A DNA stretch of 64,000 nt from Gemmatimonadota bacterium. Lineage in GTDB: Bacteria > JBHIER01 > G020348925. A program made the position numbers and the translations under genes. Location of the stretch: NCBI GenBank assembly GCA_020348925.1, contig CP070758.1:4386548-4450547 (forward strand), written 5' to 3'. Positions 52,847 to 55,481 of the stretch are shown one piece after another. The notes below the pieces were generated by a model, which was not told the DNA's origin, searched no databases, and saw nothing but the letters and a program-made list of their open reading frames with translations. Numbering within the stretch: position 1 is the stretch's first letter; each line of letters begins with the position of its first letter.

Positions 52847-52875
52847 TTGACATTGAATGATTCGATATGTATACT
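52847..52875 (+). promoter_or_regulatory. Consensus sigma-70 promoter
   Basis: TTGACA (52847-52852) and TATACT (52870-52875) with a 17-bp spacer. Transcription should start near 52882, some 356 bp before the next start codon, leaving a long leader. Confidence 0.75.
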
Positions 52876-52881
52876 AATTTC

Positions 52882-53200
52882 ACATCTCGGACATTCTGCG
52901 AATTGCCGAGATAAGGCCTTAGTTTGAAGTCCCGCACACCTCGGGATTCAACTGGAACAGGCAAGCGATCCGGGTCCCGATGGAAAATCGGCAGATTGCG
53001 AATGGCTATAAGCCTAATGAGGCCTTATGGAGAAATTGGCGACCAAAGGGAGCTCAGTGCTAACGCGTTGAAGCTGCAACCGGAAGTCTGTCAATGTGCT
53101 TCCGGACTCGAGCAGGGGGGAAGCCACCTCCTCGTTACAGCAAAAACGCCAAGCCCAGGATACCCCGTAATGACTCTCTCTTTCGAATGTTTTAAATTAA
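52882..53200 (+). ncRNA. Candidate structured leader RNA upstream of the aminotransferase gene
   Basis: This GC-rich stretch contains at least five hairpins in series and almost no protein-coding signal. Paired arms are ATCTCGG with CCGAGAT (about 52886-52914), a stem of TCCCG with CGGGA (about 52932-52949), CCGAT with ATCGG (about 52978-52992), ATAAG-CCT with AGGCCTTAT (about 53008-53029) and CCGGAAG with CTTCCGG (about 53079-53105). It does not match the tmRNA, RNase P, 6S, SRP, lysine, glycine, cobalamin, TPP or T-box signatures that I know. It could be a cis-regulatory leader of the aminotransferase or a free RNA. Confidence 0.5.
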
Positions 53201-53237
53201 CGATGTGCTTAGCAATCCCCAAGGAAAGGCGTTGCTT

Positions 53238-54416
53238 ATGAAAAACCCGAAGCTCTTCATCGGGGCGAAACGGCTGGCGCAGCTGCCGCCCTATCTTTTT
53301 GCTGAACTTGACAGAAAGAAACGGCAAGCCGTCCGGTCAGGGCGTGATGTTATCGATCTTGGAGTGGGTGATCCGGATATGGCCACACCCTCCCTCATCA
53401 TTCAGCGCTTACGCCTTGAGGCTGCCCGAAAGGAAACGCATAGATACCCATCGTACAACGGACTGCAGGAATTTCGGGAAGTCATCGCCGACTGGTTTGA
53501 GAGTCGATTCTCCGTTCCTCTCGATCCGAACCGTGAGGTACTCGTATTGATCGGTTCCAAGGAAGGGCTCGGCCATCTTCCCTGGGCACTTCTCGACCCC
53601 GGTGAGACGGCCATTATCCCTAATCCGGCCTACCCCGTCTATGAGAACGGAACCCTTTTGGCCGGAGGAAAACCTTTCAGGATTCCCCTGCTGGAAGAGG
53701 ACAGGTATCTTCCGGATCTTGAGGCTATCGCTCCGAACATGGCCGACGCGGCGAAGCTCCTCTATCTCAATTATCCCAACAATCCCACGGGCGCAGTAGC
53801 CGATGCCGATTTCTTTCAAAGTGTTGTCGACTGGGCGGTACGGTACAATGTTGTCATCTGCCACGATGCTGCCTACACCGAGATTGCTTTTAATGGGTAT
53901 CGTCCCCCCAGTCTCCTTTCAGTCGCCGGAGCAAAAAAGGTTGGAGTGGAGTTTCATTCTCTGTCAAAGACGTTCAATATGACTGGCTGGCGGGTCGGCT
54001 TCGCCGTCGGCAATGCTGACGTTATCAAAGCTTTAGGCGAAATCAAGAAAAACGTAGATTCCGGTGTCTTCGGTGCCGTCCAATACGCCGGAATCGAAGC
54101 TCTCGACCATTACTCGGAGCTGATTGACGATATTCGTATGGTCTATCAAGATCGCCGTGATGTGCTGGTGGAGGGACTTACGAGGCTTGGCTGGAAGTTA
54201 CATAAAACAGAGGCGACCTTTTATGTGTGGGCGCGTCCTCCTGTGGAAAGGTCATCCACCCAATTGGCCGAACGACTCCTCGAGGAAACCGCCATAGCTG
54301 TCGCTCCCGGGGTTGGATTCGGCACCTTAGGTGAGGGGTATATCCGGTTTTCCCTCACCAACGAAAAGAGCCGGATTGAGGAGGCGGTGGATCGAATAAA
54401 GAAAGTAGGATTTTAA
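53238..54416 (+). CDS. dapL: PLP aminotransferase class I/II, LL-diaminopimelate aminotransferase-like
   Basis: A 392-aa fold-type I aminotransferase. Visible are DLGVGDPDMATP, YPSYNGLQEFREVIADW, NYPNNPTGA (179-187), Asp210 with Tyr213 (CHDAAYTEI), Lys244 binding PLP (HSLSKTFNMTGWRVGF), and the C-terminal Arg motif GYIRFSLT. The pattern YP.YNG and AAYTEIAFNG fit the LL-DAP aminotransferase group, which makes LL-DAP from tetrahydrodipicolinate for lysine and peptidoglycan. Other specificity within the family cannot be excluded. ATG 53238 is preferred because it has GGAAAGG upstream; the frame extends to 53205. A long structured leader precedes it. Confidence 0.87.
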   Translation: MKNPKLFIGAKRLAQLPPYLFAELDRKKRQAVRSGRDVIDLGVGDPDMATPSLIIQRLRLEAARKETHRYPSYNGLQEFREVIADWFESRFSVPLDPNREVLVLIGSKEGLGHLPWALLDPGETAIIPNPAYPVYENGTLLAGGKPFRIPLLEEDRYLPDLEAIAPNMADAAKLLYLNYPNNPTGAVADADFFQSVVDWAVRYNVVICHDAAYTEIAFNGYRPPSLLSVAGAKKVGVEFHSLSKTFNMTGWRVGFAVGNADVIKALGEIKKNVDSGVFGAVQYAGIEALDHYSELIDDIRMVYQDRRDVLVEGLTRLGWKLHKTEATFYVWARPPVERSSTQLAERLLEETAIAVAPGVGFGTLGEGYIRFSLTNEKSRIEEAVDRIKKVGF

Positions 54417-54464: not shown

Positions 54465-55481
54465 ATGATGAGTTCGCGTTATATCGCTTTTATTACGGTT
54501 TCTATGCTGTTGTTGTTTCTCTTTCAGTCACCCTCCTCCTACGCCGATCGCGAGGTGAAGGAGACAGAAGAGAAAGCTTTTAAAATGGAACCCGGAGGGA
54601 CCATAAAGATTACGGCGGACGAGGGATACGTTCGCATCAGCTCCTGGGATCGGTCGGAAGTTGAGATACGGCTGACGAAATACGCCAGGGGCAAGAACAG
54701 GCGTGAAGCCGGGCGCCTTCTCGAGCAGATTGAGGTCGATATGGAACAGACTGGCAATCGCCTCATCATCCGAGAATTGGAGACTGACGATGAGTCATAT
54801 TCTCTCATTGACCTCTTTGACCCCAACACGTGGAATAGGATGGGTGGCCGCAGCACGTGGGTCAATTTTGATGTGACTGTACCCCGTGAGACCAATCTTG
54901 ATATCATTACGGACGAAGGGGATATAATCATCTCCTCTGCCGATGGGAAAGTTGAGGTCGATACGGACGAAGGGAATATTGAATTGTATGAGATTCGATC
55001 TCATGAGATCTCCGTCATTACGGATGAAGGAGACATGCTGCTCGAGCATATTCGTGCACCCGCATCCGCATCATCGAGCCGTCTGTTGGTTGATACGGAT
55101 GAAGGCAATACGGAGTTGGCGGACGTGGAGATCGAACGCGTAAAGATCGAAAGCGACGAGGGCAACGTTACGGCTGATATGCTCCGCTGTGAACGTTTTG
55201 ATTTTTACTCCGATGAAGGCAGCATCGAGGCCGACCTGGCTATTCTTCCCGGAGGCGATTATCGCTGTCGGACCGATGAAGGCGAAATAATTCTTTTTCT
55301 CCCCCGCGATGCCTCATTCTCAATTACTGCCAGAAGTCAAGAGGGAGAGATTCGTTCAGATTTTCCCATTGAGGTCAAAGAAATCGGGGACGGCGAACGT
55401 ATTGACGATGTGGTGGGAGACGGTGGTGCTGATATCTATCTCTTCGTCGACGAGGGAAGGATTCGGCTCCGCGAGAAATAA
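54465..55481 (+). CDS. Exported DUF4097-like protein with repeated DEG motifs
   Basis: A 338-aa protein with a signal peptide (SMLLLFLFQSPSSYA). The rest is a beta-strand repeat protein of the DUF4097 (putative adhesin) type, in which each turn carries an acidic DEG triplet: 52-54, 150-152, 168-170, 187-189, 212-214, 231-233, 250-252, 271-273 and 329-331, plus QEG at 292-294, most 18-25 residues apart. A stacked beta-solenoid with a ladder of Asp/Glu on one face is expected, able to bind calcium or a basic ligand. AGGGG precedes the ATG. It is 260 bp upstream of the bactofilin/Omp85-like gene and probably works with it on the surface. Confidence 0.8.
   Translation: MMSSRYIAFITVSMLLLFLFQSPSSYADREVKETEEKAFKMEPGGTIKITADEGYVRISSWDRSEVEIRLTKYARGKNRREAGRLLEQIEVDMEQTGNRLIIRELETDDESYSLIDLFDPNTWNRMGGRSTWVNFDVTVPRETNLDIITDEGDIIISSADGKVEVDTDEGNIELYEIRSHEISVITDEGDMLLEHIRAPASASSSRLLVDTDEGNTELADVEIERVKIESDEGNVTADMLRCERFDFYSDEGSIEADLAILPGGDYRCRTDEGEIILFLPRDASFSITARSQEGEIRSDFPIEVKEIGDGERIDDVVGDGGADIYLFVDEGRIRLREK

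What the first reader, a model, noticed from the sequence alone, without database searches (positions are those of the whole stretch)
52847..53237. Unannotated structured RNA leader ahead of a DapL-type aminotransferase
A consensus promoter (TTGACA, 17 bp, TATACT) opens a leader of about 355 nt with at least five well-paired hairpins and no credible reading frame. Such a long structured leader on an amino-acid gene suggests a riboswitch or other cis-regulator. It matches none of the RNA classes I can recall in detail. The alternative is a free-standing RNA whose 3' end lies near 53140-53200.
Basis: partly seen in the sequence, partly recalled or inferred. Interest (0 to 1): 0.75.

Follow-up and report, generated by a model that had tools for sequence, protein, structure and literature searches.

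The report
New dispersed structured RNA element family
The folded stretch in front of this amino-acid gene is not a gene-specific switch: it is an old, promoter-bearing copy of a previously undescribed small mobile element, scattered about 30 times through this genome and found in at least four bacterial phyla, whose folded shape evolution has preserved base pair by base pair.

Summary
In detail: a TTGACA-17-TATACT promoter opens a ~356-nt structured leader ahead of a DapL-like aminotransferase, with no Rfam match. The interpretation changes. Bases 52878-53060 are a diverged member (82-102 bits) of an uncatalogued ~170-nt structured element with about 30 copies in this genome and 2-26 in genomes of at least four phyla. 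Five helices are supported by very strong covariation (47 of 50 pairs with compensatory double changes; score 0.507 against at most 0.155 with slid partners). Copies lie between unrelated genes, in both orientations, sometimes in frame inside protein genes (a nucleotidyltransferase, an O-antigen ligase); none was found near 80 other dapL genes. So it is not a dapL riboswitch but a non-autonomous, REP/RPE-like mobile structured element that happens to form part of the dapL 5' UTR. Most striking: in one genus all 10 copies sit just behind tRNA genes; each carries a 9-14-nt complement of that very tRNA's T-arm, and nearly all end in a clear second copy of its 3' end, so the target sequence is built into each copy. 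The enzyme that moves it is unknown; no IscB or TnpB gene was found here. The leader's 3' half (53059-53154) is unique and unexplained.

The parts
52847..52875 (+). sigma-70-type promoter TTGACA-17-TATACT; start expected near 52882, at the first bases of the element
   Evidence: 11 of 12 consensus positions; only two other copies examined, L155 and L185, have a site of 10/12 ending 5-7 nt before the element
52878..53060 (+). structured mobile-element copy (the family unit), five helices H1-H5
   Evidence: CM hits 102.1 bits (R1), 94.3 (R2), 82.0 (R3); 52-64% identical to the other copies
52884..52912 (+). H1: ATCTCGG (52884-52890) with CCGAGAT (52906-52912)
   Evidence: all 11 pairs of helix 1 covary in A4; positions
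52924..52951 (+). H2: TTGAA+TCCCG (52924-52934, one bulged G) with CGGGA+TTCAA (52942-52951); other copies have TTGAAGGGGG/CCCCCTTCAA
   Evidence: all 11 pairs of helix 2 covary; positions
52954..52960 (+). conserved single-stranded linker GGAACAG (family GGUGACAG/GGUAACAG)
   Evidence: alignments A3 and A4
52965..52999 (+). H3: GCGATC with GATTGC; this copy has a small extra hairpin CCGAT/ATCGG in the loop
   Evidence: 7 of 7 pairs covary; length varies greatly among copies
53006..53030 (+). H4: CTATAAGCCT with AGG-C-CTTATGG (one bulge); other copies CCAGAGGGTC/GACCCTCTGG
   Evidence: 7 of 10 pairs covary
53034..53060 (+). H5 with the GC-GA-NN-AAA-NN-GA-GC apical motif (GCGACCAAAGGGAGC at 53039-53053)
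   Evidence: exact 15-mer at five places in the genome; 9 of 9 pairs covary
53059..53154 (+). unique 3' leader domain, predicted three-way junction (GCGTT/AACGC, GCTG/CAGC, CCGGAAG/CTTCCGG)
   Evidence: z -2.04; not a second copy of the element (best 0.4 bits); no clear homologue in G000 or the 97 other genomes
53211..53236 (+). hairpin AGCAA/TTGCT holding the likely Shine-Dalgarno AAGGA (53221-53225)
   Evidence: fold of 53058-53237 and direct reading; no comparative support
53238..54416 (+). DapL-type aminotransferase gene downstream
   Evidence: NCBIfam PRK09276 573 bits; nearest relatives in genome contigs 58% identical

Best explanation
Bases 52878-53060 are a diverged, structurally intact copy of a previously undescribed family of small (120-210 nt) non-autonomous mobile elements that act as a folded single strand (RNA, or one strand of DNA). 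SHOWN by computation: ~30 dispersed copies in this genome in three sequence subfamilies; the same fold in genomes of at least four phyla; strong base-pair covariation; insertion inside protein genes; and, in one genus, copies directly behind tRNA genes with direct repeats of the tRNA 3' end and an orthologous tRNA locus without the element. INFERRED: the copies spread by transposition-like insertion carried out in trans by an enzyme not yet identified, which recognises the folded element (conserved GGUGACAG and CGCCA linkers, the H4 hairpin and H5). At dapL an old copy landed upstream; its start coincides with a good promoter, so it is now probably transcribed as the first half of the dapL 5' UTR. 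Any effect on dapL (spacing, mRNA stability, processing) is local co-option, not the function of the family.
For: CM search of own genome: 30 placed loci at E <= 2e-4, subfamilies A, B and C. Covariation: A3 score 0.373 against at most 0.137 slid; A4 0.507 against at most 0.155, 47/50 pairs with double changes, 484 cells. Family in 10 of 385 other genomes at up to 177 bits, an Omnitrophota MAG at 109 bits, and 5 of 6 genomes of G093's phylum with 2-12 copies each. Insertion in genes: L254 lies in frame in a nucleotidyltransferase, where PDB 8x7s aligns to residues 1-64 and 114-273 at abutting positions; L190 and L191 in frame, antisense, in an O-antigen ligase. tRNA type: all 8 copies of G226 and both of G085 directly follow tRNAs; complement to own T-arm 9-14 nt in the ten (15 in L203) against 5.7 expected in shuffles; orthologous tRNA-Gln in G085 without the element. 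Both orientations to neighbouring genes. G.U pairs exceed A.C mismatches 122:44.
Against: No mobilising enzyme identified; TnpB (PF07282) and RRXRR/IscB (PF14239) searches of the own genome were empty, the latter uninformative because its controls were silent too. No clear target-site duplication outside the tRNA type. The window copy is strongly diverged from every other copy (52-64% identity) yet keeps its fold and a near-consensus promoter, which a dead relic would not need. Elements at orthologous positions in sister genomes (L178/L179) are about as conserved as the neighbouring gene while the flank differs, hinting at function in place. The G.U/A.C asymmetry is not significant in the structure-blind alignment A1 (48:37).
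Confidence: 0.75

Rival explanations
1. The window copy is the active source gene: a free-standing or leader ncRNA transcribed from the 52847 promoter, with a host function, of which the dispersed copies are SINE-like offspring.
For: Best promoter of the copies examined, ending 2-3 nt before the unit; fold kept by compensatory changes; an extra, well-formed 3' domain; the single-copy element of G206 (L185) also has a 10/12 promoter at its start.
Against: Only 52-64% identical to the other copies, so it is not the template of the recent subfamily B; the best subfamily-A representatives (L146, L147; 178-196 bits) lie elsewhere.
Confidence: 0.15
2. A cis-regulatory RNA (riboswitch, protein-binding leader or attenuator) of amino-acid genes.
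For: Position in a 5' UTR with a promoter; several copies in other genomes lie just upstream of genes in sense, such as rpsF (L178, L179) and an aspartokinase-like gene (L189).
Against: Unrelated neighbours (clpB, a ferric reductase-like gene, rpsF, tRNAs), both orientations and copies inside ORFs; absent from the stretches held around 80 dapL homologues; ~30 copies per genome.
Confidence: 0.06
3. A purely DNA-level repeat (palindrome cluster, recombination or transposase-binding site) whose structure matters only as cruciform or double-stranded DNA.
For: Loops such as GCGAAGC and GCGAAAGC also form very stable DNA hairpins (general knowledge); dispersed REP-type repeats act as DNA.
Against: G.U pairs outnumber A.C mismatches 122 to 44 in the sense strand, which a double-stranded cruciform would not produce, though single-stranded DNA of one polarity could; conserved unpaired linkers and tandem G.A motifs look like RNA.
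Confidence: 0.25
4. Stand-alone omegaRNA (guide RNA) copies of an IscB- or TnpB-type nuclease.
For: Many dispersed structured RNAs without an ORF resemble the stand-alone omegaRNAs of some genomes (recalled, not tested).
Against: No Rfam hit, although Rfam holds HEARO as far as I recall; no OrfB zinc-ribbon protein in the genome; RRXRR empty but uninformative; no conserved guide position at the non-tRNA copies.
Confidence: 0.03

Closest known systems
Mobile/repeat sequence candidates (MRSC), e.g. MRSC-65-2 (Narunsky et al. 2024, PMC11109978)
   Same: Covarying structured motif in dozens of copies per genome, inconsistent orientation, several phyla; inferred selfish element.
   Different: MRSC-65-2 is one long stem with UYCCGG repeats and is sometimes next to a transposase; this family has five helices, conserved linkers and a tRNA-targeting branch. 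I could not compare it with all 250 MRSC motifs of that paper.
Rickettsia palindromic elements (RPE; from my own knowledge)
   Same: Small structured repeats, dispersed, tolerated in frame inside protein genes.
   Different: Other phyla, other sequence, five-helix architecture, strong covariation across phyla, tRNA-tailored copies.
REP/BIME/REPIN (PMC3116915, PMC3733652) and ERIC (from memory)
   Same: Intergenic, dispersed, hairpin-rich, non-autonomous.
   Different: REPs are 20-40 bp palindromes tagged GTAG or CGTC; here ~170 nt with five distinct helices. A RAYT transposase was not searched for.
HEARO/IscB omegaRNA and IS110 bridge RNA (from my own knowledge)
   Same: Transposon-linked structured RNAs; the tRNA-type copies contain a segment complementary to their site.
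   Different: No linked ORF, no Rfam match; the complementary segment differs from copy to copy and fits only its own site.
Integrative elements at tRNA 3' ends (tyrosine recombinases; from my own knowledge)
   Same: Intact tRNA on one side and a duplicated tRNA 3' end on the other, with the junction in the T-loop.
   Different: About 200 bp and no integrase gene; each of ten copies carries the 3' end of its own tRNA, plus an antisense T-arm segment.

Membership tests
riboswitch / amino-acid leader | consistent association with one gene class or pathway | tested here: not met
   ~30 copies beside unrelated genes; none in the stretches around 80 dapL homologues
riboswitch / amino-acid leader | conserved sense orientation in 5' UTRs | tested here: not met
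   both orientations, convergent sites and insertions inside ORFs
riboswitch / amino-acid leader | ligand-dependent expression switch | not testable with these tools
   needs in-line probing and reporter assays
any Rfam 15 family | match to a covariance model | tested here: not met
   only tRNAs and chance hits
dispersed mobile structured repeat (MRSC/RPE/REPIN-like kind) | many copies per genome, dispersed | tested here: met
   ~30 loci in G000; 2-26 in others
dispersed mobile structured repeat (MRSC/RPE/REPIN-like kind) | evidence of insertion (interrupted gene or empty site) | tested here: met
   in-frame in a nucleotidyltransferase and an O-antigen ligase; tRNA-Gln locus without the element in a sister genome
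dispersed mobile structured repeat (MRSC/RPE/REPIN-like kind) | covarying secondary structure | tested here: met
   47/50 pairs
dispersed mobile structured repeat (MRSC/RPE/REPIN-like kind) | identified mobilising transposase or related enzyme | not tested
   only the OrfB zinc ribbon and RRXRR were sought, both empty
REP/REPIN | 20-40 bp palindrome with GTAG or CGTC tag | tested here: not met
   ~170-nt five-helix unit
stand-alone omegaRNA (IscB/TnpB) | cognate nuclease in the genome | tested here: inconclusive
   PF07282 absent with working controls; PF14239 empty but controls silent
tyrosine-recombinase element at tRNA | direct repeat of the tRNA 3' end flanking the insert | tested here: met
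   for the tRNA-type copies; weak for L208
tyrosine-recombinase element at tRNA | element-borne integrase | tested here: not met
   inserts are about 200 bp without room for an integrase gene

The most novel reading that the evidence does not exclude
The family is a bacterial SINE-like mobile RNA whose insertion is steered by base pairing: in the tRNA branch each copy holds a 9-15-nt segment perfectly complementary to the T-arm of the very tRNA it sits behind and usually ends in a fresh copy of that tRNA's 3' end, so the target match is made or selected at each insertion. The window copy would be an old member of the same system that became a promoter-driven leader.
Probability: 0.15. Interest if true: 0.9.

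Novelty: new variant of a known kind. Interest (0 to 1): 0.62.

Why it matters
An abundant structured-RNA class with very strong covariation has no Rfam entry that detects it, although it occurs in at least four phyla. It shows that long structured leaders in single genomes can be repeats rather than riboswitches. The tRNA branch, with a segment matched to each copy's own tRNA, gives a concrete, testable puzzle about how small non-autonomous elements find and remodel their target. The alignments made here are enough to build a family model.

Tried and rejected
Rfam at gathering and lax thresholds on the window and on representative copies: nothing. DapL homologues of 80 genomes as a source of homologous leaders: none within the stretches held. 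IscB and TnpB partners: none. Viral contigs, plasmids and phages: no match to the core or to one copy. A second, tandem copy in the 3' half of the leader: rejected (0.4 bits). An intron reading, first suggested by L197 (in-frame stop inside, apparent ORF on both sides), was dropped: the upstream gene ends at the element start and the downstream gene can start right after it. Literature searches for a matching repeat found only related concepts.

Full report
OBSERVATION. The promoter (TTGACA 52847-52852, TATACT 52870-52875, 17-bp spacer) and the ~356-nt leader before the ATG at 53238 are as described. The downstream protein is a DapL-type aminotransferase. Folding energy is not decisive: z -0.39 for the whole leader and -2.02 for its first 181 nt. 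No Rfam 15 family matches.

THE LEADER CONTAINS A REPEAT. Comparing 52860-53240 with 98 whole genomes found short but significant matches within the window's own genome. Reading those places showed a ~166-nt repeat present many times. A MAFFT alignment of 12 copies plus the window showed that the window's first ~180 nt are collinear with it from end to end: H1 TTTCGG../..CCGAAA, H2 TTGAAGGGGG../..CCCCCTTCAA, H3 GCGATCC../..GGATCGC, H4 CCAGAGGGTC../..GACCCTCTGG, H5 around GCGACCAAAGGGAGC. The window keeps these helices with different bases: H1 ATCTCGG/CCGAGAT, H2 TTGAA(G)TCCCG/CGGGATTCAA, H4 CTATAAGCCT/AGG-C-CTTATGG. Its identity to the other copies is only 52-64%.

COVARIATION. On the plain MAFFT alignment A1 the structure has covariation score 0.200 against at most 0.124 when partners are slid. 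A covariance model from A1 found 30 placed loci in the genome at E <= 2e-4, including two further subfamilies with almost unrelated stem sequences but the same shape. On A3 (19 own copies) the score is 0.373 against at most 0.137; on A4 (51 rows, several phyla) 0.507 against at most 0.155, with compensatory double changes at 47 of 50 pairs and 91% of cells paired. A3 and A4 were fitted to the structure, which favours it, but the slid controls and the A1 result cannot be explained that way. In A4, G.U pairs outnumber A.C mismatches 122 to 44; in A1 the difference is not significant (48 to 37). This suggests that the sense single strand, most simply RNA, is what folds.

DISTRIBUTION. The model hit 10 of 385 other genomes, none from the window's phylum, with up to 177 bits; both hits of G419, a Candidatus Omnitrophota MAG, score about 108 bits (named). 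In G093's phylum 5 of 6 held genomes carry 2-12 copies. The window's phylum, that of G093 (one family only), that of G226, and the Omnitrophota make at least four, as far as the tool's groupings allow. Pattern counts of the H4 core give 6-26 sites in most positive genomes, with a tandem array in G286. The invariant parts are GGUGACAG between H2 and H3, CGCCA between H3 and H4, and the H4 hairpin; H1, H3 and H5 vary freely in sequence and H3 nearly vanishes in some copies.

NOT A dapL SWITCH. Copies lie next to clpB, a ferric reductase-like gene, rpsF, an aspartokinase-like gene, V-ATPase-like genes, tRNAs and others, in both orientations. None is found in the stretches held around 80 DapL homologues from other phyla.

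INSERTION. In L254 the element lies in frame and in sense inside a nucleotidyltransferase: the PDB relative 8x7s aligns to residues 1-64 and 114-273 at adjoining positions, leaving about 49 extra residues encoded by the element. In L190 and L191 it lies in frame and antisense inside an O-antigen ligase. L187 interrupts the 5' end of a DUF5615-like gene; its flanks were not joined. Genes thus tolerate the element as they tolerate Rickettsia palindromic elements (my own knowledge).

tRNA BRANCH. In G226 all eight copies lie directly behind a tRNA gene on the same strand (Gln, Gln, Ser, Ser, Leu, Leu, Leu, Cys); in its genus-mate G085 both do (Phe, Cys). Each contains a 9-14-nt perfect complement of the T-arm of its own tRNA, and L203 (Nitrospirae, tRNA-Gly) 15 nt; shuffled sequences average 5.7 and reach 9 in 1.2% of trials; other tRNAs match as well only when they share the same T-arm. 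Nearly all end in a second copy of the tRNA 3' end (exact stretches of 9-25 nt; weak in L208); in L203 the direct repeat reads as about 42 nt. The orthologous tRNA-Gln of G085 has no element. Intrinsic-terminator-like hairpins lie between tRNA and element in L255 and L199, so pairing within one transcript is not an obvious purpose. An integrase model explains the duplicated 3' end but not why one family carries the right 3' end and complement for many different tRNAs; these must arise at or after each insertion. This is the least explained and most interesting part.

THE WINDOW COPY. It is diverged but intact, and the promoter ends 2-3 nt before the unit, so it is probably transcribed as the first half of the dapL leader. 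Of the 46 copies examined only L155 and L185 have comparable sites so placed. The second half, 53059-53154, can form a three-way junction, is not another copy and has no clear homologue in the genomes searched. The Shine-Dalgarno region can fold into a weak hairpin. Whether the leader regulates dapL cannot be told from sequence.

RELATION TO KNOWN SYSTEMS. By behaviour it belongs with mobile/repeat sequence candidates (PMC11109978), REPINs (PMC3116915) and RPEs, but it is not a REP (20-40 bp, tagged; PMC3733652), and no IscB or TnpB partner was found (the TnpB test is valid, the IscB one lacked positive controls). I know of no published family with these features, but the literature search covered open-access papers only.

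LIMITS.

Noticed in passing
L160, L164, L167, L175 (own genome): Subfamily C copies sit inside another dispersed inverted repeat (..CTGGTCTTTCTTTTTGCTTC / TTCTTGGCCAGCAAAGAAAAAG..), as if nested in or travelling with it.
   Followed up: no
L065:1400-1540 (G000:C1:2786590): A different dispersed-looking repeat shares only the tip motif GAGCGACCAAAGGGAGCGAAGGATCTTG, resembling widespread GAGCGAAGCGAAGGATCT-type intergenic repeats.
   Followed up: no
window 53059-53154: Unique three-way-junction-like domain in the second half of the dapL leader, without homologue in the searched genomes.
   Followed up: partly
G286:C39:5158-5424 (L242, L250): Tandem array of short forms of the element, spaced 97 and 159 bp.
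   Followed up: partly
L178 and L179, upstream of rpsF: The element lies exactly between an AGGAGG-like Shine-Dalgarno and the ATG of rpsF in two sister genomes and is far better conserved than the flank upstream.
   Followed up: partly
L255, L199: A terminator-like hairpin separates the tRNA from the element, so tRNA and element are probably not in one transcript.
   Followed up: no
window 54465-55481: LiaG-like protein rich in repeated DEG motifs directly after the aminotransferase gene.
   Followed up: no
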